Assembly (NCBI GenBank): GCA_007859745.1
Contig: SMLU01000003.1
Coordinates: 186,001 to 250,000 of the forward strand
Length of the DNA stretch: 64,000 nt
Reading direction: 5' to 3'
Source of the DNA: Phycisphaerae bacterium RAS1
GTDB taxonomy: Bacteria > Planctomycetota > Phycisphaerae > UBA1845 > Fen-1342
Numbering within the stretch: the first letter of the stretch is position 1; each line of letters opens with the position of its first letter. A model generated the notes under the pieces. The model saw only the letters and a list, made by a program, of their open reading frames with translations, was not told the DNA's origin and made no database searches. Below are positions 15,396 through 50,728 of the stretch, in pieces. Both the position numbers and the translations under genes were made by a program.

Positions 15396-16439
15396 TTGTC
15401 GAAGCGCACTGCCGGCCGCCGCGCGGCCTTTACCTTGATCGAACTGCTGGTCGTTGTCGCGATCATCGCGCTGCTCATCGCCATCCTGATCCCCAGCCTC
15501 AACGGCGCCCGCGAGCAGGCCAAGCGCGCCGTCTGCCTGGCGAACCTGCGTAACATGGGAATGGCGACTCAGGCGTATTCTTCCGAAGATACCAACGAGC
15601 ACACCGTGCCGATCCACGTTCAGCACGTGCTCGGCCCCTACCGCACCTTTCCGCTGTGGCGCACGACCAACTGGTTCGCCTGGGGCGGCGTCGACGGCAT
15701 CAAGCCGTTCAAGATCACGACCACCGGCCAGCTCACCTTCAACGACAACGACCCGGAAGGTAAGAAGTGGTCCGGCCGGACGCGCCCGCTCAACAAGTAC
15801 GTCTACAAGAACCTGAGCGCCAGCGACGCGCTCAAACCCACCATCTTCAAGTGCCCCTCCGACGCCGGCTACCGGCTGCACGGACTGACCGACGACGCGC
15901 CCAAGGAGAGTCAGAACACGCCCTGCATCCAGATCCTGGGAAACAGCTATCGCGGCAGCTTCTGGTGCTGGATCACCTATCCTGACGTTCACAACGTCTT
16001 TACCATGAGCGCCTGGGGCCATCGCATTTCGTCCCTGGTGAACACCAGCGAGATCATCCTCTTCGGCGAGCCGAACTTCTTTAACATGATCGGCAACGAC
16101 ACCGGCACACTGGCCGACCTGGCCCCGATCAATCTTTACGGCTGGCACAAGCGCGTGATGACCGACAACCTTTTGTATTGCGACGGGTCCGCCCGTACGA
16201 CGCAGGCCGGCAAGACGGCCTTCACGCGCGGCCTGGGGGCCGACATGGGCATCTCGCAGAACAACGCCGCCATGATCCGCCGTGGAAAGAACTGGCGGCT
16301 CGACACGTATCCGACGCCGGGCGCGCGGATCAAGGGCGCCCAGCCGCGCTGGTGGCTGGAGGGCGTTCTGAACATCAACGAGTGGCCGATTGCCGGCGCC
16401 CAGGACAACATGAAGGATCACCCGGTTCCGGGCAGCTAG
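15396..16439 (+). CDS. Prepilin-type (type II secretion/pseudopilin-like) protein, paralog 1
   Basis: The 347-residue product starts with a type IV prepilin signal: basic residues, then [20 protein letters not shown] with the Glu five residues after the cleavage site. I chose the TTG at 15396 because AGGAG lies seven bases before it and the start then matches the paralogs. The body shares [34 protein letters not shown] and a GWHKR...CDGSAR stretch with the three genes that follow. This is a variant of the H-x-DG pattern of planctomycete prepilin-like proteins. After processing it should sit in the inner membrane or join a pseudopilus. It is the most divergent of the four paralogs. Confidence 0.85.
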   Translation: MSKRTAGRRAAFTLIELLVVVAIIALLIAILIPSLNGAREQAKRAVCLANLRNMGMATQAYSSEDTNEHTVPIHVQHVLGPYRTFPLWRTTNWFAWGGVDGIKPFKITTTGQLTFNDNDPEGKKWSGRTRPLNKYVYKNLSASDALKPTIFKCPSDAGYRLHGLTDDAPKESQNTPCIQILGNSYRGSFWCWITYPDVHNVFTMSAWGHRISSLVNTSEIILFGEPNFFNMIGNDTGTLADLAPINLYGWHKRVMTDNLLYCDGSARTTQAGKTAFTRGLGADMGISQNNAAMIRRGKNWRLDTYPTPGARIKGAQPRWWLEGVLNINEWPIAGAQDNMKDHPVPGS

Positions 16440-16469
16440 TGGAGCGTCGCCAATCCTGTGAGCCTTTGG

Positions 16470-16494
16470 GTGGGACGGGCGTCTCGCCCGTCCG
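16470..16494. repeat. Family E repeat
   Basis: GTGGGACGGGCG followed by TCTCGCCCGTCCG, a short palindrome seen in many gaps of the window. It lies just after the first prepilin gene. Confidence 0.65.
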
Positions 16495-16511
16495 GCGATC
16501 GTGAGAGCGAT

Positions 16512-16581
16512 CCGAGCCGCGACCGTGAGGGAGCGGTTCTTTGGTGCGGAGGGCGACCGCCCCCTCACGGTCGCGGCTCGG
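16512..16581. repeat. Family A repeat, full copy with perfect 20-bp arms
   Basis: The left arm (16512-16531, CCGAGCCGCGACCGTGAGGG) is the exact reverse complement of the right arm (16562-16581), with 30 bases between. It fills the middle of the 315-bp gap between prepilin paralogs 1 and 2. A strong stem-loop could form in RNA from either strand. Confidence 0.85.
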
Positions 16582-16662
16582 AAATCGTAGTTGCGGCGCG
16601 AGAAAACGCGGCCCGATTGTGCGCCGCGAGGTTATCGGTCCTAATTTGGTCGAATAATTCGC

Positions 16663-16690
16663 TTGCCCGTGACGCGGGAGCGGTTATACT
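16663..16690 (+). promoter_or_regulatory. Promoter of prepilin paralog 2
   Basis: TTGCCC, 16 bases, then TATACT, followed after 11 bases by GAATTGTCGAAAATTGTA (16702-16719). The same layout (TTGC, 16 bases, TATACT, then AAATTGTCGATAGTTGTA) lies upstream of paralog 4. Conservation of the downstream motif suggests a regulator site or a shared mRNA leader. Confidence 0.6.
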
Positions 16691-16754
16691 TGAGTTGTGT
16701 GGAATTGTCGAAAATTGTACAGAGCAACGGACACGCCTCAGGAAGGAACACGTC

Positions 16755-17786
16755 ATGCCAAGAACGCATAGCAAGCCGGCGTTCACACTGATCGAACTGC
16801 TGGTGGTCGTCGCAATCATCGCGCTGCTGATCTCGATCCTGATCCCCAGCCTCAACGGCGCCCGCGAGCAGGCCAAACGCGCCTATTGCCTCGCGAATTT
16901 CAAGAGCATCGGCAATGCCGTGCAAGCCTACGCCAGCGAGGACGAGCGCGAACACGCCGTCCCCATCCACTGGCGGCACGTCGTCCGCGGCACCGGGCCG
17001 TTCAACCTCTGGCGCACGACCAACTGGTTCGCCTGGGGCGGCGTCGATGGCACCAAGCGCTACAACATCACCTCCAGCGCCGGCATCACGTTTGACGAGA
17101 ACGACAACGTCGGCAAGGACTGGGCCGGCAAGACCCGTCCGCTCAACAAGTACGTCTACAAGACGCTCAACCCCAACGACGCCAAGAAGCCGACTATCTT
17201 CAAGTGCCCTTCCGACGTGGGCTATCGCATCCACGGCCTGAACACGCACACCACCGCCGAAAGCCGGCTCTCGCCCTGCATTGAAGTGCTGGGCAACAGC
17301 TATCGCGGCAGCTTCTACTGCTTCCTGAACACGGCCGCGCAATGGCCGACGAACGTCATGGCGATGGGCCCTTGGGGCCACCGCCTCTCGACGCTGCGAA
17401 ACGCTTCCGAGATCTGCCAGTTCGGCGAGCCGAACTTCTTCTACATGATCAGTGACGAGACCGGCGCCCCGTCGGACTCGGACCCGATCGTGGTGTACGG
17501 CTGGCACAAGAAAGTGCTGACCGAGAACATCCTGTTCATCGACGGCTCCGCCCGCAGCACGCAGTGCGGCAAGACGCGCCCGCCTTCGGAAGCCGCGGCG
17601 GACATGGGAATCCCCGATACCGCCCGCTACATCCGCCGTGGCAAGGGCTGGCGTCTGGACACGTATCCGACGCCCGGCGCGCGGATCAGCGGCGCCCGCC
17701 CGCAATTCTGGCTCCCGGCCACGTGGGCGAATCAGTGGCCGGTCAACGGCGCCCAGGACAACATGCCGGACCATCCGGCGCAGTAG
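16755..17786 (+). CDS. Prepilin-type protein, paralog 2
   Basis: The 343-residue product has the prepilin signal [20 protein letters not shown]. It is very close to paralog 4 (19473-20504) along its whole length, differing at scattered positions. The body has [82 protein letters not shown] and a conserved end with [10 protein letters not shown] good ribosome binding site, AGGAAGGAA, lies ten bases before the ATG. Its role is inferred to be a pseudopilin or surface-exposed minor pilin-like protein. The secretion machinery is not in the window, although a PilT ATPase gene lies at 46524-47660. Confidence 0.85.
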   Translation: MPRTHSKPAFTLIELLVVVAIIALLISILIPSLNGAREQAKRAYCLANFKSIGNAVQAYASEDEREHAVPIHWRHVVRGTGPFNLWRTTNWFAWGGVDGTKRYNITSSAGITFDENDNVGKDWAGKTRPLNKYVYKTLNPNDAKKPTIFKCPSDVGYRIHGLNTHTTAESRLSPCIEVLGNSYRGSFYCFLNTAAQWPTNVMAMGPWGHRLSTLRNASEICQFGEPNFFYMISDETGAPSDSDPIVVYGWHKKVLTENILFIDGSARSTQCGKTRPPSEAAADMGIPDTARYIRRGKGWRLDTYPTPGARISGARPQFWLPATWANQWPVNGAQDNMPDHPAQ

Positions 17787-17808
17787 ATGCGAGTTCGCCG
17801 TTTCTCAG

Positions 17809-17871
17809 TCCGAGCCGCGCGCGTAAGCAAGCGGTTCTGAAGCGTCCGCTCCCTCACGGTCGCGGCTCGGA
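17809..17871. repeat. Family A repeat
   Basis: Arms starting TCCGAGCCGCG and ending CGCGGCTCGGA, 63 bp in all, in the gap after prepilin paralog 2. Confidence 0.75.
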
Positions 17872-17879
17872 GAGAGTGG

Positions 17880-17976
17880 GTAGGCTGGGCTGAGTACTCG
17901 AAGCCCAGCGCGTTGCGTAGCTGGGCTTCGAGTACTCAGCCCAGCCTACGAACTTCGAGTACTCAGCCCAGCCTAC
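17880..17976. repeat. Family D hairpin plus extra half copy
   Basis: A 30-bp arm (17880-17909, beginning GTAGGCTGGGCTGAGTACTC) is the exact reverse complement of 17920-17949, with a ten-base loop. A truncated right arm follows at 17954-17976. It lies downstream of prepilin paralog 2 and could act as a terminator, although no T-run follows the stem. Confidence 0.85.
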
Positions 17977-18028
17977 GAACTACGAACTACGAACTGTTCC
18001 ATTTGCGCCCCGCGTTGGAGATTAGCAA

Positions 18029-19060
18029 ATGACCCCGTTGGTTCGCTCGAGACGTGGTTTTACGCTCATTGAACTGCTGGTCGTGGTCGCGATCATCGCC
18101 TTGTTGATCTCGATCCTGATCCCCAGCCTGAACGGCGCCCGTGAGCAGGCCAAGCGGGCCTACTGCCTGGCGAATCTCAAGAGTATCGCAAACGCCGTGC
18201 AGGCCTACGCCAGTGAAGACGAACGCGAGCACGCGGTCCCGATTCACTGGAGGCACGTGGTTAAAGGAACCGGACCGTTTAACCTCTGGCGAACGACGAA
18301 CTGGTTTGCCTGGGGCGGCGTCGACGGCACGAAGCAATTTAAGATCACGAGCTCGGCCGGGATCACGTTCGATGAAAACGACGCCGTCGGGAAGGACTGG
18401 GCGGGAAAAACGCGGCCGCTAAACAAGTACGTCTACAAGACTCTCAACCCCAACGACGCCAAGAAGCCGACCATCTTCAAGTGCCCGTCCGATGTCGGCT
18501 ACCGCATCTTCAGCACCAACAACCACACGACGGCTGAGAGCCGGCTGACACCGTGCATCGAGATCCTCGGAAACAGTTACCGCGGCAGCTTTTACTGTTA
18601 TCGCAACGGCGGATCGGCCTGGCCCACAAACGTCATGGCCATGGGCCCGTGGGGGCACCGCTTGTCGACGATGACCACCGCCTCGGAGATTTGCCAGTTT
18701 GGCGAGCCGAACTTCTTCTACATGATCAGCGACGAGACCGGCTCGCCCTCGGACGCCGACCCGATCGTGGTATACGGCTGGCACAAGAAAGTGCTCACCG
18801 AGAACATCCTGTTCGTCGACGGCTCGGCCCGCACCACCCAGTGCGGCCGAACGCGACCGCCGACGGAAATCGCGGCCGAGATGGGAATTCCCGACACGGC
18901 GCACATCATCCGCCGCGGCAAGGGCTGGCGCCTGGACACGTATCCGACGCCCGGCGCCCGGATCAGCGGGGCACGTCCGCAGTTCTGGCTGCCTTGGACG
19001 ACACAGTGGCCGGTCGCCGGCGCCCAGGACAACATGCCGGACCATCCGCCGGTGCAGTGA
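18029..19060 (+). CDS. Prepilin-type protein, paralog 3
   Basis: The 343-residue product has the prepilin signal [19 protein letters not shown] after MTPLVRS. The body follows the same plan as paralogs 2 and 4 but differs in codon choice and in several blocks ([39 protein letters not shown]). It therefore separated earlier than the pair formed by paralogs 2 and 4. GGAG lies seven bases before the ATG. No promoter like those of paralogs 2 and 4 was found in the 242-bp gap, which holds repeats, so read-through from paralog 2 is possible. Confidence 0.85.
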
Positions 19061-19089
19061 ACAAGCACGCTTGCACGAGCGGGTAGCGG

Positions 19090-19159
19090 GTAGGCTGGGC
19101 TGAGCTTGCGAAGCCCAGCGCCAGCCGTGGCTGGGCTTCGAGTACTCAGCCCAGCCTAC
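19090..19159. repeat. Family D hairpin, second copy
   Basis: The left arm (19090-19119) and right arm (19130-19159) pair with a few mismatches around a ten-base loop. It sits just after prepilin paralog 3, in the 412-bp gap before paralog 4. The rest of the gap holds a half family B repeat and the promoter of paralog 4. No gene is seen in it. Confidence 0.8.
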
Positions 19160-19244
19160 AGCTACTCAGCCCAGCCTGCCGCTACCAATCCGGGTCAAGC
19201 ACCACCGGCGTAGACCCACGACGCGCCAACGCCAACGCGCCCGG

Positions 19245-19278
19245 ACGTCACCCCGCCGCTTGGCGCGGCGGGTTCGGA
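19245..19278. repeat. Half copy of family B repeat
   Basis: The right arm only (ACGTCACCCCGCCGCTTGG followed by CGCGGCGGGTTCGGA). Confidence 0.7.
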
Positions 19279-19344
19279 CAAGCCAGCGGGCGTGCCCGGA
19301 TTTCTGGGTACACCCCCTTTGACCAGCACCTCCAAAAAACCGCC

Positions 19345-19372
19345 TTGCATCGCGTCCGCAGCTCGCTATACT
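19345..19372 (+). promoter_or_regulatory. Promoter of prepilin paralog 4
   Basis: TTGCAT, 16 bases, then TATACT, followed after ten bases by AAATTGTCGATAGTTGTA. The arrangement repeats that upstream of paralog 2 (16663-16719). The distance from TATACT to the ATG is 100 bp here and 64 bp there, so paralog 4 has a longer leader. Confidence 0.6.
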
Positions 19373-19472
19373 CCATTGTCTGAAATTGTCGATAGTTGTA
19401 TGATGGCGGTCGCCGCCGTGCGGCGATGCTGTCGCAGTTTTCTGAGAGCCCCCTGTCAGAGGATTTCACGCC

Positions 19473-20504
19473 ATGTCCAAGAACCGTTCGAAACCTGCCT
19501 TCACCCTGATCGAGTTGCTGGTGGTGGTCGCGATCATCGCGCTGCTGATCTCGATCCTGATCCCCAGCCTCAACGGCGCCCGCGAGCAGGCCAAGCGCGC
19601 CTACTGCCTGGCCAATCTCAAGAGCATCGGCAACGCCACCCAGGCGTACGCCAGCGAGGACGAGCGCGAGCACGCCGTTCCGATTCACTGGCGGCACGTC
19701 GTCCGCGGCACCGGGCCGTTCAACCTCTGGCGTACGACCAACTGGTTCGCCTGGGGCGGCGTCGACGGCGTCAAGCGCTACAACATCACCTCCAGCGCCG
19801 GCATCACGTTTGACGAGAACGACAACATCGGCAAGGATTGGGCCGGCAAGACGCGTCCGCTCAACAAGTACGTCTACAAGACGCTCAACCCCAACGACGC
19901 CAAGAAGCCGACCATCTTCAAGTGCCCGTCCGACGTGGGCTATCGCATCCACGGCCTGAACACGCACACCACCGCCGAGAGCCGGCTCTCGCCCTGCATC
20001 GAAGTACTGGGCAACAGCTATCGCGGCAGCTTCTACTGCTTCATCAACACGGCCTCGGCCTGGCCGACGAACGTCATGGCGATCGGCCCGTGGGGCAAGC
20101 GCCTCTCGTCCCTCAAGAACGCTTCGGAAATCTGCCAGTTCGGCGAGCCGAACTTCTTCTACATGATCAGTGACGAGACCGGCGCCCCATCGGACTCGGA
20201 CCCGATCGTGGTTTACGGCTGGCACAAGAAAGTGCTGACTGAAAATCTTCTGTTCATCGACGGCTCGGCCCGCAGCACGCAGGCCGGCAAGACCCGCCCG
20301 CCGTCCGAGGCGGCCGCGGACATGGGCATCCCGGATACGGCGTACATCATTCGCCGCGGCAAGGGCTGGCGGCTGGACACTTACCCGACGCCCGGGGCGC
20401 GCATCTCCGGCGCGCGTCCGCAATTCTGGCTCCCGGCCTCGTGGGCGAATCAGTGGCCGGTCAACGGCGCCCAGGACAACATGCCGGATCACCCGGCGCA
20501 GTAG
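19473..20504 (+). CDS. Prepilin-type protein, paralog 4
   Basis: The 343-residue product begins [20 protein letters not shown], the prepilin signal. It matches paralog 2 nearly throughout, including [20 protein letters not shown] and the end [18 protein letters not shown]. The main differences are FINTASAWPTN, GPWGKRLSSLKN and SARSTQAGK. AGAGGATTTC lies upstream of the ATG. The near-identity to paralog 2, together with the shared promoter block, points to a recent duplication of gene plus upstream region, or to gene conversion. Confidence 0.85.
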   Translation: MSKNRSKPAFTLIELLVVVAIIALLISILIPSLNGAREQAKRAYCLANLKSIGNATQAYASEDEREHAVPIHWRHVVRGTGPFNLWRTTNWFAWGGVDGVKRYNITSSAGITFDENDNIGKDWAGKTRPLNKYVYKTLNPNDAKKPTIFKCPSDVGYRIHGLNTHTTAESRLSPCIEVLGNSYRGSFYCFINTASAWPTNVMAIGPWGKRLSSLKNASEICQFGEPNFFYMISDETGAPSDSDPIVVYGWHKKVLTENLLFIDGSARSTQAGKTRPPSEAAADMGIPDTAYIIRRGKGWRLDTYPTPGARISGARPQFWLPASWANQWPVNGAQDNMPDHPAQ

Positions 20505-39756: not shown

Positions 39757-42726
39757 CTATAGTCGCAGAGCGGTGTCTTCGACGAGGTCGATCTCACTCT
39801 CGGTGAGGTCGAATAGTTCGTAGACGATGCGGTCAATCTGTCGATCGACGGCGGTAATCTGTCGAGCTGCCGCGGTAGCCTCGTGATCGATGCGCGTCTG
39901 CGACAATGACTGATTTAGCGCCAACATGCTGTTGACGAGCCGATCCAGCCTTGCGAGGTTCGGCGCGTGCGCCTTGGATGTCGCAGATTGATGCGGAAGC
40001 GGCAGCTCGCGGGTCTGTTCGAGGATGATCTTGGGGAAGTCATCTCGGCGCGCTGCTGCATTTAGGCGTACAAAAAACCACGAGAGCAGTTTACTGTTCA
40101 GAATCGCCAGGATTTGCAGCAGCGACAGGACGCCGCGTGACGAAGCCGACGGAATCAAGCTCTGAACGGACTGACTGGTGAGCATGAACTCCTCAGTGTA
40201 CGTTGCTTGAAGTCGGAGCGATCTGCTGAGCACTTGCCGAAGGAGAATCCGGTTCGACGAGAAGTACTCCACTGGCTTGCTGCGCTGAATGTCGGGGGGA
40301 AACGAAATGAACAGCCGCTGGCCTGGCTCGAGAATGTAGCGCTGCAGCACACCGGCAAACGCGGTCTGCGGGTTTGTCAGCCCCTTCTTGAATCTCACGG
40401 GCTGGAATGTCTCGATGCCTCGCTTCACCGACAGTTCGTCACCAAGGACGAATCCGGTTGTTCGAAGCTTGTTAATGAGGCGTGTTTCGTCCGTCGAACA
40501 GGTTACAAGGAACTCAAACCGCGGGCTCGTGCGCCATAGTCCGAGGTCGGACGATTTGTGAAAGCACTCGAACTCTTCAACCGTAGCGATCTTATGGCGC
40601 GCCGGAAAGACGTACAGGTCAATAGCCGTGCTCGCTTCTGCTCTGTCCCACTTCTGCGCGGTGACGATTACACAATCGACATACGCAGCAAACACGTCGA
40701 ACGGCAGCGATACGAAGCTGGTCGGCCGAAACTGCTCGACAAACAGCATCCTTAGAGGCATTGCTGAAGGTAACGAAGTCCACCCGGACGGGATGATCAT
40801 GCCGAACTGCCCGTCGTTACGAAGTAACTGACCCGCACGCTCTACAAACAGCAAGAAACTGTCAAGTGAGTTTGCCGGAGTCCGGTATCGCGAACGCAGG
40901 TATTGTTCCTCGGCTCGCGAGAACGACGCGCCATACGGCGGGTTTGCGACGATCGCGTCAAACCCACCCGATCTGATGATCGTCCGAAACTCGTCATTCC
41001 AATCAAACACGTTGATCTTGTAGCGCGCCTCGTCATCCAGCAGTAGCAACTGCTGATTCTCGTAAAAGTCTGGCCCGATCAGCGAGTTTCCGCACTTGAT
41101 GTTGTCGCCCAGGTCCGGCAGCGCCCGCTCATGCAGCAATCGCCATTGATTTGTCAGCGTCTCGCCGGACTCGCCCTCGAGCACCTTGAGCAGGAGCGAT
41201 AGTTTCGTCACCTCGACCGCCTGCGGGTCGATGTCCACGCCGAAGATGCTGTTCAGCAGGATTCGCTTGCGCTCCGACGTCGTCAGTCTCCATCCGCTCC
41301 CATTGGTCGCATCAGCGCCCGCGGACTCGCGGCCGCGCGTCGCCTGATAGATCGGCGGGCTCTTGCCGCGGGCGAGTTTCTCGGGGTCGTGCTCTGAATA
41401 CCACTTCAGATGCCAGTCGAGCAGGAACTGATACGCGGCGATCAGGAACGAACCGGACCCGCAGGCCGGATCGAGTATTCGCAGCTTCGCGGCGTCTTTC
41501 GGTGTTATCGCGTCCGGAGCAAGGACCGCACCTGCGCCATCCGTGCCGGCGCTTTGCTCGAGCACTCCGAGCAGCCGGCCGACCGTATGCCGGACGATGT
41601 AGTCGACGATGTATGTCGGTGTGTAGTAGACGCCGCCGGCCTTTCGGACTTCCGGCTTTTCCTCGACGACCGCCCGGTGACCGGTCGTGAGGCGGATGAC
41701 TTTTCCGAGGAACTGCTCGTAGACCTGCCCGAGAATATCCGCCGGCAACACGCCAAACGCGTACGGGCTGTCGGGGTAGTACAGGTTTCGAACAATGTCC
41801 TTGAGCACCTTGTCGTCGACGCTCAGCGTCGGCGTCAGCTCGTCCGGCGGCTCGCTGCGATCGCGCTCGCGTTCGAAGTGAAAGATTCCCGAGTTGTAGC
41901 GCTGATCAGCGGCGCGGAAGAACACGCCCAGGCGCTCGTAGACACGCTCGCCATTGAGGAGCGACGCGAGCTGCGAATAGGGCTCCATGCCCCGGTCTTC
42001 GGCGATGCGCAGAAAGATGATCCGGTCGATGATCCGCTGAACGGCGAAGTTAAGGTCGCGTTGCGAGATTTCCGGATTGCGCAAAGCGACGTTGCGCGCC
42101 AGCGCGTCGCGCCAGCCCTCGATTTCGGCGAGAAAGGCGCGGTCCACCTCCGTTGTCCCCCGCTTGCCGCGCGCGGATTCCGCGAAGCGGTCGAAGGCGC
42201 CCTTGAGCACCGCGTCGCGCGAGAAGACCGCGGCAATGTCGCCCCATTTTTCGGCGTACTCCTCGAACGTGCAGTAGATCAGCCGGCCCACCGACGGTTT
42301 GTCATTCTGGCTGGGCTTCTGGCGACAGTCGTAGACCGCGAATTCCTCGAAATCGGTCAGGACCGAGAGCGGGAGCTTCGCCGACCAGGCATAGCGACGG
42401 AGCTGATACGCCGGAACCGGATCAGACTTCAGGTTGACGCCCGGCTTCTTGGCCTCGACAAAGAACTTGCGTGTGCCGCCGATGCGGAACGAATAGTCGG
42501 GCGCCTTCAGGCCTTCGCCGACGCGGAGCGAGTCTTCGTGAATGACATCCCGATAGGCGTCGGCGTAGCCGCCGGCGTTCGCAACGTCCCAGCCCAGCGC
42601 CGCAAAAAGCGGGTTGATGAAATCGATGCGGCACAGCGTTTCGTTGTACGCGGATGAGCGATAATGCTCGCTGTTTGTGCGGAACTTCTCGACCAGATCA
42701 AGAACGGAAGTCGGTGCAGTCCCCAT
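39757..42726 (-). CDS. Type IIG-like restriction-modification enzyme (Eco57I-like)
   Basis: The 989-residue protein combines a PD-(D/E)xK nuclease (Asp77 in KAPDYSF, Glu91 and Lys93 in FFVEAKKPG), a helical linker, and an N6-adenine methyltransferase. The methyltransferase has GGVYYTPTYIVDYIV near 370, motif I ILDPACGSGSFLIAA near 415 and motif IV IVANPPYGASFSRAEEQYL near 590. The C-terminus is a TaqI-like specificity domain ending in coiled helices. It should recognise, cut and methylate DNA as one chain. It is unlike the type ISP enzyme at 5976-9215 in detail. The gene starts at ATG 42726, close to a stray ggt fragment, and ends seven bases before mnmG. Confidence 0.87.
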   Translation of the reverse strand: MGTAPTSVLDLVEKFRTNSEHYRSSAYNETLCRIDFINPLFAALGWDVANAGGYADAYRDVIHEDSLRVGEGLKAPDYSFRIGGTRKFFVEAKKPGVNLKSDPVPAYQLRRYAWSAKLPLSVLTDFEEFAVYDCRQKPSQNDKPSVGRLIYCTFEEYAEKWGDIAAVFSRDAVLKGAFDRFAESARGKRGTTEVDRAFLAEIEGWRDALARNVALRNPEISQRDLNFAVQRIIDRIIFLRIAEDRGMEPYSQLASLLNGERVYERLGVFFRAADQRYNSGIFHFERERDRSEPPDELTPTLSVDDKVLKDIVRNLYYPDSPYAFGVLPADILGQVYEQFLGKVIRLTTGHRAVVEEKPEVRKAGGVYYTPTYIVDYIVRHTVGRLLGVLEQSAGTDGAGAVLAPDAITPKDAAKLRILDPACGSGSFLIAAYQFLLDWHLKWYSEHDPEKLARGKSPPIYQATRGRESAGADATNGSGWRLTTSERKRILLNSIFGVDIDPQAVEVTKLSLLLKVLEGESGETLTNQWRLLHERALPDLGDNIKCGNSLIGPDFYENQQLLLLDDEARYKINVFDWNDEFRTIIRSGGFDAIVANPPYGASFSRAEEQYLRSRYRTPANSLDSFLLFVERAGQLLRNDGQFGMIIPSGWTSLPSAMPLRMLFVEQFRPTSFVSLPFDVFAAYVDCVIVTAQKWDRAEASTAIDLYVFPARHKIATVEEFECFHKSSDLGLWRTSPRFEFLVTCSTDETRLINKLRTTGFVLGDELSVKRGIETFQPVRFKKGLTNPQTAFAGVLQRYILEPGQRLFISFPPDIQRSKPVEYFSSNRILLRQVLSRSLRLQATYTEEFMLTSQSVQSLIPSASSRGVLSLLQILAILNSKLLSWFFVRLNAAARRDDFPKIILEQTRELPLPHQSATSKAHAPNLARLDRLVNSMLALNQSLSQTRIDHEATAAARQITAVDRQIDRIVYELFDLTESEIDLVEDTALRL

Positions 42727-42786: not shown

Positions 42787-42895
42787 GCCCCGCGGCCGCC
42801 CGCGGCTTTCCGCCCTTTCGCGGGTCGCTTACCCCCACAACGGTCCCATCCTCCAGAATCTGAATCGCCTGCACCGCCGCGGTGGGACGCGTCAG
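42787..42895 (-). pseudogene. Fragment of ggt 3' end (direct repeat, left copy)
   Basis: On the minus strand this 109-bp stretch reads as the end of gamma-glutamyltransferase (IQILEDGTVVGVSDPRKGGK). It matches 44545-44652, the true ggt 3' end, at about 87 of the first 100 aligned positions without gaps. No other part of ggt is present here. It lies in the 234-bp gap between two divergent RM genes. Confidence 0.85.
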
Positions 42896-42960
42896 CGCCA
42901 GGCATGGCGCCGGACGCATCCAGTGGCGTCGCGCCCGAGCCGCGTGGTAATCTCCGCAGC

Positions 42961-43920
42961 ATGCCGGTCCGAAAGCGCAAACTCGCTGCCCGCTCAGAGG
43001 CGCAGATTCGCCTCCTGCCGCAACTTCGCGAGGCCGCCGGCTTCGGTCGTTACGAGCTGGTTTGCGCCGACGCGCTCGAATGGCTCGCGGGAGCGCCGCG
43101 AAACAGCATCCATGCGGTGGTCACCGACCCGCCCTATGGCCTCGTCGAGTATCGGCCGCAGGAACTGGCCAAGCGCAAGAGCGGACGCGGCGGCGTATGG
43201 CGGATTCCGCCGGCGTTCGACGGGCAGCAGCGCAGCCCGCTTCCGCGGTTCACCGTTCTGACCGAAGCCGAGCGGGCCCAGCTCCGCGATTTCTTCCGCC
43301 AGCTTGCGGCGCGGCTGCTCCCGGTGCTCGTTCCTGGCGCGCACATCTTCATCGCCACCAACCCGCTCGTTTCCTATCTCGTCTACGAGCCCTTCATCGC
43401 CGCCGGATTCGAGAAGCGCGGCGAGATCATCCGCGTGGTGCACACGCTTCGCGGCGGCGACCGGCCCAAGAACGCCCATCGCGAGTTTGACGAAGTCTCG
43501 GTCATGCCCAAGTCCTGCTGGGAACCGTGGGGTCTCTTCCGAAAGCCCTGCGAAGGCCGCGTGCAGGACAACCTGCGCCGCTGGAAGACCGGCGGCTTGC
43601 GTCGCATCTCGGCCGAGGAGCCGTTCAAAGACCTGATTCACGCTGCCCCGGCCCGCGGGATCGAGCGGGCGATCGCCCCGCATCCATCGCTGAAGCCGCA
43701 AGCGCTCATGCGACAACTGGTGAGCGCGGCGCTGCCGCTGGGCGACGGCGTTATTCTCGATCCCTTCATGGGCTCGGGCTCGACGGTGGCGGCGGCGTCG
43801 GCGCTCGGGCTGGAGAGCGTCGGCATCGAGAAAAGCGATGAGTACTATCGGCTCGCGACGGCTGCGGTTCCGCGGCTGGCGGAGCTCGTCGTCAGGGATC
43901 GGAATGGCGAGAAAAACTGA
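42961..43920 (+). CDS. DNA methyltransferase of a type II RM system (beta class)
   Basis: The 319-residue enzyme has the catalytic motif DPPYG at residues 56-60 ahead of the cofactor motif ILDPFMGSGSTVAAA near 266. That order defines the beta class of amino-methyltransferases (N6-adenine or N4-cytosine). KPQALMRQLV and GIEKSDEYYRLA are also typical. In the middle, residues 60-250 hold the target-recognition part (EYRPQELAKRKSGRGG and on). The ATG at 42961 has no strong binding site. The gene overlaps the start of the broken nuclease gene by 17 bp. With that nuclease disrupted, the enzyme may now act as a solitary methylase. Confidence 0.87.
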   Translation: MPVRKRKLAARSEAQIRLLPQLREAAGFGRYELVCADALEWLAGAPRNSIHAVVTDPPYGLVEYRPQELAKRKSGRGGVWRIPPAFDGQQRSPLPRFTVLTEAERAQLRDFFRQLAARLLPVLVPGAHIFIATNPLVSYLVYEPFIAAGFEKRGEIIRVVHTLRGGDRPKNAHREFDEVSVMPKSCWEPWGLFRKPCEGRVQDNLRRWKTGGLRRISAEEPFKDLIHAAPARGIERAIAPHPSLKPQALMRQLVSAALPLGDGVILDPFMGSGSTVAAASALGLESVGIEKSDEYYRLATAAVPRLAELVVRDRNGEKN

Positions 43921-44534
43921 CTTTCACGCCGCGGTTCCGTTGCCGGCGGGGCTGGAAGTCGGCGCGATTCGCCGCTCCATCGAATACATGGAGCGCGAAC
44001 TTTCCGACTTGGTCGAGATTTACTACGAACAGGCGAACGTGTTCAGCGCGATTGTCGGCATCTTCGGAACGCGCGCTGCATTCCGTCAGTAACTACGAAA
44101 AGCACAAACACGCAGACACCGCACAGCAGCGATTCCCCGACCTGCGCCGTAAGGGATCAGGCCTCAACCCTTCGCCACAGGACTGTCTCGAGAGCAAAGC
44201 CAGCAAACGCCCGTGGGCGCTCCAGTCACACTACGACCACGCCGGTTGGTACATCGTCTGGAGATATCTGGTTGATCCGACTGAGACGCTTGAGCCAGGC
44301 AAGCCGGTCGTGGTCTGGCGCGTCGACATCATCTTTCTCGAAAAGCAGGATTGGAAATACGAATCGAGCACAGCCGGCGCGGCGGGAGGTGGGCGGACGC
44401 ACACGTTCGGGCTGAGCGAAGCCGCAAAGCGCTTGCGGGGACACGCGGTCTATCGGCGCGCCGATGTTGTGATTCGCGGAGGAAAGCCGATTCCAAGAAA
44501 CGGAAATCACGACGAGGACAGTGGTACCGAATAG
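43904..44534 (+). pseudogene. Restriction endonuclease candidate, broken by a frameshift
   Basis: The frame starts at ATG 43904 (MARKTDFHAAVPLPAGLEVG), runs through YYEQANVFSAIVGIFGTRA and would stop at 44092. The sense reading continues in the frame one base later (ALHSVSNYEKHKHADTAQQR) to a TAG at 44534. The joint lies at the run ACGCGCGC (44069-44076), where loss of one CG pair explains the shift. The second part has a PD-(D/E)xK-like pattern: FPDLRRKGS, then after about 14 residues LESKASKRPW. It also has WYIVWRYLVDP and VVWRVDIIFL. The place right after a methylase supports a cognate nuclease. I do not recognise the exact family. A sequencing error could give the same picture. Confidence 0.65.
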
Positions 44535-44539
44535 GGCGT

Positions 44540-46531
44540 TCAAGGCCCCGCCGCCGCCCGCGGCTTGCCCCCCTTCCGCGGATCGCTCACCCCCACCAGC
44601 GTCCCATCCTCCAGAATCTGAATTGCCTGCACCGCCGCCGCGCGACGATCAGGCGAGAGCTTCTGCCCGTGCGACTCCAGTCCGGCCGCCAGTTCCGCCA
44701 GCGGCGGCTGGTCGAAAAAGACCAGGTCGGGCGACCACTGGTGATGCACGCGCGTGGTCTCCACCGCGTCGGGCAGCGGCATGTCGTGCTCGATTACGTT
44801 CAGCAGCACGTTCAGCACCGACGACACGATCCGCGGGCCGCCCGACGCGCCCAGAACGAGGATCGGCTTTCCGTCTTTCAGCACGATCGTCGGCGTCATG
44901 CTCGACAGCGGCCGCAGCCCCGGCGTCGGGCGGTTGGCGTCACTCTGCACGAGGCCGAACAGATTCGGCCCGTCACCGATGGTGTAATCATCCATCTGGT
45001 TGTTCAGCAGAATGCCGAACGGCTCGGTCATAACCAGCGAACCGAACGGACCGTTGATGGTCTCGGTCATCGAGACGATGTTGCCGTCCTTGTCGATGAT
45101 GCAGAAGTGCGACGTGCCGCGGTCGTCCGGGGCCGCGGGTGGAGCGGCCGACCCGCCCGTTTCCTGGGTTGTGGGGACGGGCGAGACGCCCATCCCACCC
45201 GCTCGCTGTGTCGCGGGGACGGGCGAGAGGCCCATCCCACCCGCTCGCTGTGTCGCGGGGACGGGCGAGAGGCCCATCCCACCCGCTCGCTGTGTCGCGG
45301 GGACGGGCGAGACGCCCATCCCACCCCCGATCCCACCCTCGGCTGGCGGCTTTCGAGTTCCGTAGGCGCTCGGTTCTCCCGCCGGATCGGCGAGCGGATA
45401 GGACAGGCCCAGCAGCCACTCCTGCGTCACGCTCATCTGGGCCGGATCGCCCATCCAGTACGACCGATTCGCGAAGCCGTGTTTGAGCGCTTCGAGCACA
45501 TCGTGAGTTGCGTCGGGCGGGCTGCGGAGAAAGGCCGCCTTCAGATCGACGGGTTCCAAGCTGCGCAGCGCCTCGGCCAGGATCACGCCGCCCGACGACG
45601 GCAGCGGCATGGTGATGATCTCATATCGCTGGCGATAGCTGAATCGCAGCGGGGTGCGCTCCACCACGCGGTAGCCGCTCAGGTCTTCGTGCGACAGGAC
45701 GCCGCCGGCTTCGGCGACGGCCGTCACGATCGCATCAGCGATCGGCCCGCGGTACATGGCCGCCGGCCCTTCGCGCGCCAGAATCTTGAGCAGCTCCACC
45801 TGGTCCGGGCGGCGCAGACGCTGCCCCGCCGACAGCGCCAGGTAGTGGCGGATCAATGTCTCGCGCGTGCGCGTGAAGCGCAAGCCGACCTGGGGCCAGC
45901 GCACGTAGTCCTCGTCCACTTTTTTGGCCGTCTGGAGAAAATGATCGTCGACGAGGAACCCGCGCGACGCCAGCCCGATCGCTTGACCGACCAGCGCGGC
46001 GAAGGGCTGTTTGCACCAGCGGCGGTGAATCTCAGCCAGTCCCGCGGGCAGGCCGGGCGTCGCCACCGCCAGGCCGCCATAGATGCTCGGCGAATACCCG
46101 CCGGAGCCTCCCGCGGCGCGCTGGGTCGCGGCGGCGATCAGCTTCTCGCCGCCTTGCCGCGGCGCGGTGTCGCGGAAGTCGAGCGCGACGTAGCGTTTCT
46201 CGGCCGCGACGTAAGCGATGAGAAACCCGCCGCCGCCCAGGCCGGTGCTTTCGGGCCGCGAGACGGTCAGCGCCAGCGATGTGGCGATGGCGGCTTCGAA
46301 CGCGTTTCCGCCGCGCTCGAGAATCGTGACGCCGATCAGCGAAGCATCCGGCGAATCGGCGGCAACCATCCCGCCGCGGCCGCGGGCGACAAAGTCCTGC
46401 GCGGCGGCGCGGGTGGAGCAAATCGCAACGACCGTAGCGAGTAGAAGGTGGGCACGGCCCACCCTACGGGGCGGTGTAGCCCGGCCGCCCTCGGCCGGTT
46501 CCTGCGTAGCCCGGCCGCCTTCCCTACACAT
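44540..46531 (-). CDS. ggt: Gamma-glutamyltransferase
   Basis: GGT splits the gamma-glutamyl bond of glutathione in the periplasm. The 663-residue precursor has a signal peptide (LLLATVVAICSTRAAAQ), the large-subunit motifs GGMVAADSPDASLIGV, GGNAFEAAIATSLALTVSRP, STGLGGGGFLIAY and PLPSSGGVILAEALR, and the self-cleavage site before Thr473 (DRGTSHFCIIDKDGN). The small subunit has GPFGSLVMTEPFGILLNNQM and VLGASGGPRIVSSV. Residues 402-453 are a tandem array of 14-residue units (GGMGLSPVPATQRA) made by family E DNA and ending about 20 residues before Thr473. The start is uncertain: ATG 46531 overlaps pilT and is followed by translated repeats (GGRATQEPAEGGRAT), and a GTG at 46462 directly before the signal peptide is equally possible. 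Confidence 0.88.
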   Translation of the reverse strand: MCREGGRATQEPAEGGRATPPRRVGRAHLLLATVVAICSTRAAAQDFVARGRGGMVAADSPDASLIGVTILERGGNAFEAAIATSLALTVSRPESTGLGGGGFLIAYVAAEKRYVALDFRDTAPRQGGEKLIAAATQRAAGGSGGYSPSIYGGLAVATPGLPAGLAEIHRRWCKQPFAALVGQAIGLASRGFLVDDHFLQTAKKVDEDYVRWPQVGLRFTRTRETLIRHYLALSAGQRLRRPDQVELLKILAREGPAAMYRGPIADAIVTAVAEAGGVLSHEDLSGYRVVERTPLRFSYRQRYEIITMPLPSSGGVILAEALRSLEPVDLKAAFLRSPPDATHDVLEALKHGFANRSYWMGDPAQMSVTQEWLLGLSYPLADPAGEPSAYGTRKPPAEGGIGGGMGVSPVPATQRAGGMGLSPVPATQRAGGMGLSPVPATQRAGGMGVSPVPTTQETGGSAAPPAAPDDRGTSHFCIIDKDGNIVSMTETINGPFGSLVMTEPFGILLNNQMDDYTIGDGPNLFGLVQSDANRPTPGLRPLSSMTPTIVLKDGKPILVLGASGGPRIVSSVLNVLLNVIEHDMPLPDAVETTRVHHQWSPDLVFFDQPPLAELAAGLESHGQKLSPDRRAAAVQAIQILEDGTLVGVSDPRKGGKPRAAAGP
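44545..44652. repeat. Direct repeat, right copy (true ggt 3' end)
   Basis: This 108-bp end of ggt is repeated at 42787-42895 in the same orientation. The methylase and nuclease genes lie between the copies. The nuclease stop is ten bases from this copy. Confidence 0.85.
45173..45326. repeat. Family E array inside ggt, 42-bp step
   Basis: Units begin at 45173, 45215, 45257 and 45299 (GGGGACGGGCGAGACGCCC or with GAGAGG). The step is exactly 42 bp, so the ggt frame is kept. There are about 3.7 units. Confidence 0.92.
46466..46528. repeat. Repeat pair at the ggt start (GTAGCCCGGCCGCC)
   Basis: Two units of GTAGCCCGGCCGCC followed by TTCGGC-like bases, about 30 bp apart, overlap the assumed 5' end of ggt. 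Confidence 0.6.
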
Positions 46532-49235: not shown

Positions 49236-50728
49236 AGAGTGAGAATAAATCCCCCTTGCCGGGGATGGTACATTATTCGACATGGACACGACGATGCTGA
49301 TTGCCGGAATGGATGCCGTGATGAACGACCCAGTATCGGAATCGACGGGGCGGTGTGCGTTGGCGGAGCCGCCGCGGCTTCGGCGGCCGAATCGCGAGCA
49401 GTCGTTGCTGCTGCCGTGCTGTCTGGAGGATCTGCTGCCGGCGGATCACGCGGCGCGGGCGGTTTGGTCGGTCGTGGAGCGGCTCGATCTTTCGGCGTTC
49501 AGCGCCCCGCTCAAGGCGCGCGGCGACGAGCCGGGCCGGCCGGCGACGGATCCGCAGTTGCTGACGGCGTTGTGGCTGTACGCGACGATCGAGGGGATTG
49601 GCAGTGGGCGCGAGATCGAGCGACGCTGCGGCTGCCAGGACGCTTTTCGCTGGCTGTGCGGCGGCGTGCCGGTGAACTATCACACGTTGAATGACTTCCG
49701 CGTCGGTCACGGGGCGGCGCTGGACGAACTGTTTTCGCAGGTGTTGGCGGTGCTGATGCACAAGCGGATCGTGAGCGTGCGTCGGATTGCGCAGGACGGA
49801 ACCAAGGTGCGGGCCGACGCCGGGCGGCACACCTTCCGCCGCGAGGCGACGCTGCAGCGTCAACTGACGGAAGCCCGCGCCCATGTGGCGGCGGTCAAGG
49901 CCCAGTCGGACAACCCTGCCGCGGATGCGCGACGGCGTGCCGCGCAGGAGCGTGCGGCCCGGGAGCGGGTCGAGCGAATCGAAGCGGCGTTGGCCGAGTT
50001 GCCGAAGATTGGCGCAGACCAGCAGCAGTCCAAGCGGCCGGACGTGCGTGCCAAAGAGCCGCGGGCCTCGACGATCGACCCGCAAGCGCGCGTCATGAAG
50101 ATGCCCGACGGCGGCTACCGTCCGGCGTATAACGTACAACTGGCAACCGACGTGGAGAGCCGCGCGATTGTGGGGGTGGACGTCACCCAGGCCCGCAGCG
50201 ACCACCAGCAAGCAGCGCCGCTGCGCGCCCAGGTGGAGCGGCGCAGCGGCGCGAAGGTGGTAGAGCACCTGCTCGACGGCGGCTACGTGCAGTTGGCCGA
50301 GATCGAGCGCGCCGAAGCGGCGGGCACACGCATCTATGCGCCGCCGCAGAAGACCAGGAACGACACCGCGGGCTTTGCGCCCAAACGCTCTGACGGTCCG
50401 GGCGTGGCGGCCTGGCGCGTGCGCATGGGAACGCCGGCGGGCCAGACGATCTATAAGCAGCGAGCCTCGACCGCCGAGCCGGTCAACGCCGACTTGAAAC
50501 GGTATCGCGGACTGGCGCAATGCGTCGTGCGCGGGCTGGCCAAAGTACGCTGCCAGGCCCTTTGGGCCGCCCTCGCCTACAACGTGATGCACTTCGCCGC
50601 GCAGCTCGTCACCTGACCAACGGTGAGCGAATGAACCCGCCGGTGCAGCCGAAGTAAACAAGCGAATCACGAGCCGCAGACCATGCGACAAGGAAACCGA
50701 CGCCGGCCAAAGGAAAAGTTCTCAGTCT
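49236..50728 (+). mobile_element. IS1182-type insertion sequence inserted in a family A repeat
   Basis: The element is 1493 bp with imperfect ends: AGAGTGAGAA at the left and, on the other strand at the right, AGACTGAGAA. It is flanked by CTCACG on both sides (49230-49235 and 50729-50734). Joining the flanks at one CTCACG gives the normal family A sequence (TCCCTCACGGTCGCGGCTCG), so the target was a family A repeat. One transposase gene fills it. Confidence 0.85.
49282..50616 (+). CDS. IS1182-family transposase
   Basis: The 444-residue protein has the IS1182 N-terminal domain (PNREQSLLLPCCLEDLLPAD, then DPQLLTALWLYATIEGIGSG and RWLCGGVPVNYHTLNDFRV). A basic coiled middle follows, then a DDE-type catalytic part: VRRIAQDGTKVRADAG near 170, AIVGVDVTQARSDHQQAAPL near 290 and ASTAEPVNADLKR near 395. 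The end CQALWAALAYNVMHF is typical. The length is full for the family and no stop interrupts the frame, so the element may still be active. A second ATG occurs a few codons in. The first was chosen because it follows GGGGATGG closely. Confidence 0.92.
   Translation: MDTTMLIAGMDAVMNDPVSESTGRCALAEPPRLRRPNREQSLLLPCCLEDLLPADHAARAVWSVVERLDLSAFSAPLKARGDEPGRPATDPQLLTALWLYATIEGIGSGREIERRCGCQDAFRWLCGGVPVNYHTLNDFRVGHGAALDELFSQVLAVLMHKRIVSVRRIAQDGTKVRADAGRHTFRREATLQRQLTEARAHVAAVKAQSDNPAADARRRAAQERAARERVERIEAALAELPKIGADQQQSKRPDVRAKEPRASTIDPQARVMKMPDGGYRPAYNVQLATDVESRAIVGVDVTQARSDHQQAAPLRAQVERRSGAKVVEHLLDGGYVQLAEIERAEAAGTRIYAPPQKTRNDTAGFAPKRSDGPGVAAWRVRMGTPAGQTIYKQRASTAEPVNADLKRYRGLAQCVVRGLAKVRCQALWAALAYNVMHFAAQLVT

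What the first reader, a model, noticed from the sequence alone, without database searches (positions are those of the whole stretch)
42787..44652. RM cassette framed by a 108-bp duplication of the ggt 3' end
The methylase and the broken nuclease (42961-44534) lie between two direct copies of the last 108 bp of ggt, about 87 percent alike without gaps. The nuclease stops six bases from the ggt stop. This is what insertion with a long target duplication would leave, a process proposed for RM genes in other bacteria. The 13 percent difference suggests either an old event or a cassette that brought the ggt end of another strain. No integrase is present, so the RM unit may have moved by recombination.
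Basis: partly seen in the sequence, partly recalled or inferred. Interest (0 to 1): 0.82.

Follow-up and report, generated by a model that had tools for sequence, protein, structure and literature searches.

The report
RM cassette between two gene tails
A two-gene DNA-methylation and cutting cassette sits between the real end of a host gene and a second, slightly different copy of that end, a layout that recurs at other genes in related bacteria and suggests that such cassettes can move without an enzyme of their own.

Summary
103 bp of the ggt 3' end (44545-44647) recurs in the same direction at 42787-42889 (87.4%, no gaps), flanking a methyltransferase and a frameshifted nuclease with no integrase between. 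The second copy is no repeat family and no complete second ggt.

Related cassettes lie at other loci, with a repeat across them in 5 of 20 usable cases against 5 of 219 control placements; two of the five are strong gene-tail cases, two weak, one ambiguous. The copied piece is usually the tail of a host gene, displaced past the insert: ggt, a hydrogenase (twice), serA, topoisomerase VI A. A survey found the footprint without RM genes at dnaX, comM/yifB, citF and an unnamed ORF. Most tails (7 of 10) end within 5 nt of the stop codon; differences are mostly at third codon positions.

That fits two orthologous tails brought together (incoming DNA carrying a relative's gene tail plus cassette) better than an exact target duplication that decayed. 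Known parallels are RM long target duplication and e14 in icd. No relative is close enough to show the empty site, so the mechanism is inferred.

The parts
44540..46429 (-). ggt, gamma-glutamyltransferase, intact (start codon uncertain; the open frame runs to 46822)
   Evidence: Pfam G_glu_transpept 5e-131; frame
44545..44647 (-). ggt tail that belongs to the intact gene (proximal repeat copy)
42787..42889 (-). displaced (orphan) ggt tail, 87.4% identical, reading frame kept; by eye 5 more matching bases to 42782 after a 4-bp indel
42890..42960 (+). stretch between orphan tail and MTase start without ggt homology; probably the MTase promoter (inferred)
42961..43920 (+). DNA methyltransferase of the cassette (N6_N4_Mtase; PADLOC MTase_II PDLC03215)
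43904..44534 (+). companion nuclease, broken by a frameshift; pieces 43904-44092 and 44052-44534; PD...ESK residues conserved among homologues
44532..44542 (.). junction: nuclease stop and ggt stop tail to tail, 5 bases between them
39757..42726 (-). type IIG restriction-modification gene on the far side of the orphan tail
   Evidence: Pfam Eco57I, TaqI_C; PADLOC REase_MTase_IIG 6e-169

Best explanation
Tail-anchored insertion. DNA from a relative entered the cell carrying the end of that relative's ggt followed by the RM pair. It paired with the resident ggt end on one side by homology, while the other end joined the resident ggt tail with little or no homology (homology-facilitated illegitimate recombination), or a circle of tail plus cassette integrated by one crossover. 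The gene stays whole with one tail, the cassette follows its stop codon, and the other tail is left beyond the cassette as an orphan. Shown: layout, recurrence at other genes, no integrase between the ggt copies, third-position bias, homology usually ending at the stop. Inferred: the donor, the homologous step, and which tail is foreign.
For: Layout, with only two genes between the copies. Related cassettes at unrelated loci, with a repeat of at least 40 bits across them in 5 of 20 usable loci (window, L063, L069, L146, L148) against 5 of 219 control placements, Fisher 4.8e-4. Copied tails of different genes: ggt, hydrogenase (two orphan tails), serA, topoisomerase VI A. In the survey, 10 low-copy stop-reaching tails at 8 ORFs lie downstream of their gene, against 1 low-copy start-reaching head upstream. 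Local alignments end within 5 nt of the stop in 7 of 10 tails. Substitutions at codon positions 1/2/3 are 36/25/87 over nine tails, P 2e-10 against one third and 0.003 against a duplicate with a neutral orphan. ggt: 9 changed codons, 1 nonsynonymous, P 1e-4 under neutrality. Aligned stop codons differ in kind in comM (TAG/TGA) and citF (TAG/TAA). The cassette's orientation to the gene varies, and little non-coding sequence is shared at the ends of 11 cassettes.
Against: No donor or empty site was seen; the genus holds one genome. If half of the differences fell on a neutral orphan, the ggt bias is weak (P 0.035, or 0.32 with three more codons) and the hydrogenase bias is not significant (0.16). 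The serA orphan shows no bias (13 of 16 changed codons nonsynonymous), and the longer comM orphan has a stop inside its frame, so at least these have decayed too. In 3 of 10 tails the homology runs 9, 43 or 105 nt past the stop. Multi-copy repeats give a less lopsided picture: 10 tails downstream and 3 upstream, 7 heads upstream and 5 downstream. With only the two strong gene-tail cassettes counted, enrichment is slight (2/20 v 2/219, P 0.036). 15 of 20 cassettes show no flanking repeat of 40 bits. Codon usage does not tell which ggt tail is native.
Confidence: 0.55

Rival explanations
1. Insertion with long target duplication: the RM unit inserted after ggt and copied about 108 bp of the target exactly; the copies then drifted apart.
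For: RM pair between direct repeats of about 100 bp, no integrase, different targets, variable length. [quoted passage not shown] Single-locus tests do not exclude it.
Against: Third-position excess beyond that expected for one neutral copy (P 0.003; 0.016 without ggt); stop codons that differ in kind in two pairs; most copied pieces ending at the stop (7 of 10).
Confidence: 0.22
2. Remnant of an integrative element of the e14/phage 21 type that lost its integrase: the element supplied the 3' end of ggt and the resident tail was left behind.
For: Same end product: e14 separates 163 bp of the icd 3' end and supplies the end itself (PMC6379469, passage). This genome does hold a 77-bp repeat at the 3' end of its tmRNA gene with a second copy 9 kb away, which looks like an ordinary attachment-site pair, so such elements occur here.
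Against: The insert is only 1.66 kb, two genes. No integrase was recognised among the insert ORFs scanned (the citF insert and one ORF of the dnaX insert were not scanned). The identified tails belong to different genes, which one site-specific integrase would not give.
Confidence: 0.12
3. Remnant of a tandem ggt paralogue whose front part was replaced by the RM genes.
For: Would also give synonymous differences and a stop-aligned tail. Tandem serA-like pairs do occur in two relatives (G363, G367), though the second gene of the pair continues past the point where the L148 orphan stops.
Against: 0 of 12 relatives' ggt loci hold a second tail; both ggt tails have K in GGKP, where the relatives' tails that reach it have R; it would need tandem copies of dnaX, comM and citF and three hydrogenases in a row too.
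Confidence: 0.08

Closest known systems
RM insertion with long target duplication (Nobusato et al. 2000; seen only as cited or summarised in passages of PMC3031569, PMC3874152 and PMC4978471)
   Same: RM unit between direct repeats of about 100 bp, no integrase, variable targets
   Different: Here the copied piece is mostly a coding gene tail ending at the stop, with differences biased to third codon positions, and the cargo is not only RM
e14 prophage in icd of E. coli (PMC6379469, passages read)
   Same: Insert supplies the 3' end of a host gene and leaves the resident tail as an orphan
   Different: e14 is a 15-kb prophage integrated site-specifically at one gene (that it carries an integrase is recalled); here two genes, no integrase, and different genes at the other loci
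Effector-immunity module displacement by homology-facilitated illegitimate recombination (PMC5361080, passages read)
   Same: One homologous anchor, one illegitimate end; old 3' parts pushed downstream, sometimes several in a row
   Different: There the cargo belongs to the same toxin locus; here unrelated RM, TA or other genes behind housekeeping genes

Membership tests
RM insertion with long target duplication | RM unit framed by direct repeats of about 100 bp | tested here: met
   103 bp, 87.4%
RM insertion with long target duplication | Repeat present once in the empty site of a close relative | not testable with these tools
   Only one genome in the genus; family relatives' ggt C-terminal segments are about 52-69% identical at protein level where reported separately
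RM insertion with long target duplication | Copies identical at birth, then drifting | tested here: inconclusive
   Pooled third-position excess argues against, but single-locus tests allow it
Integrative element with gene 3' end as attachment site (e14 type) | Orphan tail of the host gene beyond the insert | tested here: met
Integrative element with gene 3' end as attachment site (e14 type) | Integrase carried by the element | tested here: not met
   Only the MTase and nuclease genes lie between the copies
Homology-facilitated illegitimate recombination product | One homologous end and one illegitimate end relative to the resident locus and a donor | not testable with these tools
   No donor sequence and no empty site held
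Type II restriction-modification pair | DNA methyltransferase | tested here: met
   PADLOC MTase_II 2.6e-116, Pfam N6_N4_Mtase 1.7e-18
Type II restriction-modification pair | Cognate restriction nuclease | tested here: inconclusive
   Unnamed family next to the MTase, PD...ESK residues invariant in 6 of 6 homologues; no Pfam, NCBIfam, PADLOC or PDB sequence match for the L063 homologue; model too poor to search

The most novel reading that the evidence does not exclude
In this bacterial order RM, toxin-antitoxin and other small gene sets spread without any recombinase of their own, using the conserved 3' ends of housekeeping genes as general homologous docking sites. A circle or fragment of 'gene tail + cassette' enters by host recombination, and each entry leaves an orphan tail, so counting orphan tails counts past entries (two at the hydrogenase of L069, two at comM of G002).
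Probability: 0.25. Interest if true: 0.78.

Novelty: new variant of a known kind. Interest (0 to 1): 0.6.

Why it matters
How small RM and toxin-antitoxin units without an integrase move is an old open question. Orphan gene tails are a footprint that can be searched for in any genome, mark the point of entry, and allow donor and recipient tails to be told apart wherever close relatives exist. If the tails are docking sites, the conserved ends of housekeeping genes are a general, recombinase-free entry route for selfish and defence genes.

Tried and rejected
Dispersed repeat: rejected, this part of ggt occurs only twice in the genome. Second decayed ggt: rejected as far as testable. Transposon ends: the 410-nt stretches around each end of 11 cassettes were compared; matches beyond the coding ends are few and short, and by eye a short stretch before the start codon (GTGGTA.TCTC) is shared between the window and L061. 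tRNA as target: none in the window. Which tail is native: codon usage does not decide (log ratio 0.88). Closer ggt relatives in genome contigs: 3 loci, all distant. Nuclease structure: mean pLDDT 57.8, not searched further. L146 is counted as a flanking repeat but not as a clean gene tail: two separate pieces around a small-protein gene. L063 is weak: 27 bp and 34-40 bp of the topoisomerase VI A tail with unrelated sequence between, which I take by eye for a protease fragment. orf156 of G002 is weak and was left out of the pooled counts.

Dropped rows and choices: of 23 loci, L066, L067 and L074 had no flank on one side; 20 remain, some with short flanks (L144, L069, L070). Where no nuclease match was found, the MTase alone set the bounds. 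Controls are placements of one fixed length in fetched loci, with overlapping flanks, not random genomes; of the 5 that reach 40 bits, two are tandem gene copies in the window, one is the other hydrogenase tail of L069, one is the dnaX tail of L085 and one a 77-bp repeat in the window. The loci come from related genomes and are not independent. In one search, hits with more than two copies in the same genome (13 tails, 12 heads) and those flagged as paralogues (3 tails, 1 head) were set aside. For ggt the pooled count uses the 31-codon block, not the 36 codons. The value 0.47 is my own estimate.

Full report
What was checked. The repeat is real: 42787-42889 and 44545-44647 match over 103 bp at 87.4% without gaps. 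In frame, 31 codons (27-57 of the last 60) hold 9 changed codons, of which 1 is nonsynonymous, and 9 of 10 base changes are at third positions. The orphan copy reads ...KPRAAAGQR and then meets a stop; the intact gene ends ...KPRAAAGP. The orphan stop is not at the same position as the intact one, so I do not use it as evidence. The alignment stops abruptly about 34 codons before the end. Elsewhere in the genome this part of ggt was not found.

What lies between. A methyltransferase and a nuclease of an unnamed family, frameshifted here. Six homologues elsewhere are single frames and share a PD...ESK pattern (that this resembles PD-(D/E)XK nucleases is recall). Of 14 loci with the close MTase, the nuclease frame is uninterrupted in 6, broken, shortened or truncated in 6 (window, L061, L064, L144, L145, L148) and not found in 2 (L147, L149). 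No other gene lies between the copies.

Related cassettes elsewhere. MTase relatives with E at most 1e-45 occur in 15 of 114 genomes of the order, and with E at most 1e-40 in 8 of 294 drawn from the phylum, the own genome counted in both. They sit at unrelated loci. I compared the 1500-bp flanks of 23 such loci; 20 had sequence on both sides. Five have a direct repeat of at least 40 bits across the cassette: the window (ggt tail, 128 bits), L069 (hydrogenase tail, 128), L146 (169; two pieces near a small-protein gene), L148 (serA tail, 45) and L063 (topoisomerase VI A tail, 41). Among 219 pseudo-cassettes 5 do; Fisher P 4.8e-4. Counting gene tails only, 4 of 20 against 2 of 219, P 4.9e-4. Counting only the two strong tails, 2 of 20 against 2 of 219, P 0.036. 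Fifteen of 20 show no repeat of that strength, either because they inserted differently or because the copy has decayed. L069 carries a more distant MTase (61%) with a different nuclease beside it.

Not only RM. In L069 a second orphan tail of the same hydrogenase (270 bp, 93.7%) lies beyond an insert with a PIN-domain gene and a neighbouring small gene. One of the control loci, L085, has the last 139 bp of dnaX copied 2.6 kb downstream at 91.4%. A survey of 2,153,093 bases and 1,480 open frames of at least 150 codons found 10 low-copy stop-reaching tails downstream of their gene, at 8 ORFs: ggt; comM/yifB of G002 (two tails); a 156-codon ORF of G002 (weak); citF of G013; an ORF of L062 whose insert holds a DUF5615-DUF433 pair; the hydrogenase (two); dnaX; and an ORF of L146. 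Three low-copy tails lay upstream, start-reaching heads were 4 downstream and 1 upstream, and 60 low-copy repeats lay in mid-gene. About half a megabase of the surveyed sequence had been chosen for RM cassettes or for ggt and other neighbours, so the rate is not unbiased; in the five long stretches (1.64 Mb) the cases are ggt, comM (two tails), citF and the weak ORF. Gene names rest on Pfam; serA and ComM/YifB as names are recall, from the Pfam domains 2-Hacid_dh and Mg_chelatase.

Where the copies end and how they differ. Gapped local alignments of ten tails (nine of the survey, L146 left out, plus serA) end within 5 nt of the stop in 7; they run 9, 43 and 105 nt past it in orf156, the second hydrogenase tail and citF. 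Over nine tails (orf156 left out) changes fall 36/25/87 on codon positions 1/2/3. Against one third at position 3, P is 2e-10. Against 0.47, my estimate for a duplicate whose orphan is neutral and whose intact partner changes only silently, P is 0.003, or 0.016 without ggt. In comM (longer tail) and citF the aligned stop codons are TAG/TGA and TAG/TAA, which fits two genes that both kept a working stop, although the comM orphan also has a stop inside. The serA pair is an exception, with 13 of 16 changed codons nonsynonymous.

Reading. Two orthologous tails that met, one from the resident and one from incoming DNA, explain the third-position bias, the usual end at the stop codon (beyond it the two lineages differ), the lack of an integrase, the variable target and orientation, and stacked tails. 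Homology-facilitated illegitimate recombination is the known process with one homologous and one illegitimate end (PMC3240628, abstract; PMC5361080, passages, where it is proposed for stacked effector-immunity modules). A single crossover of a circle made of tail plus cassette would leave the same product. I cannot separate these two.

Known ground. RM insertion with long target duplication is in print (seen as cited and summarised in passages of PMC3031569, PMC3874152 and PMC4978471; the 2000 paper itself was not read, and a 2010 follow-up is not held). The e14 element leaves a 163-bp icd orphan and supplies the gene end itself (PMC6379469, passage). I saw no paper that describes orphan housekeeping-gene tails beside integrase-free cassettes in the searches (no paper listed); apart from the papers named, only listings were seen.

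Limits. The genus holds one genome; relatives' ggt C-terminal segments are about 52-69% identical at protein level, so neither the empty site nor the donor could be seen. Which ggt tail is foreign stays open.

Noticed in passing
window 45152-45361: A 42-bp unit repeated in frame inside ggt (GGMG[VL]SPVPATQRA); a similar peptide stretch matches elsewhere in the genome (G000:C1:2485290).
   Followed up: no
window 49282-50616: Transposase gene (DDE_Tnp_1, DUF772) about 4.7 kb from the cassette, on the ggt side; no sign that it frames the cassette.
   Followed up: partly
L069 408-5336: Three tails of one [NiFe] hydrogenase large-subunit gene in a row, framing an RM-like pair and a PIN-domain gene.
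   Followed up: yes
L085 435-4842: dnaX tail copied beyond a 2.6-kb insert with (by eye) a secreted PEP-CTERM-like gene and a 412-aa ORF without Pfam match.
   Followed up: partly
L269 11428-17190 (G002:C19:271428-277190): comM/yifB followed by two orphan tails and an insert with a beta-lactamase-family gene.
   Followed up: partly
G000:C3:87254-87330 and 96296-96372: 77-bp direct repeat at 97.4%; the second copy overlaps the 3' end of the tmRNA gene (C3:96340-96689). It looks like the attachment sites of a 9-kb integrated element at the tmRNA gene (inference).
   Followed up: no
L061, L064, L144, L145, L148 and window 43904-44534: The companion nuclease is broken, shortened or truncated in 6 of 14 loci with the close MTase and not found in 2 more, so the methyltransferase seems often to outlive its partner.
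   Followed up: partly
window 15424-20496 (G000:C3:201424-206496): Four gene copies in tandem at 71-87% identity.
   Followed up: no
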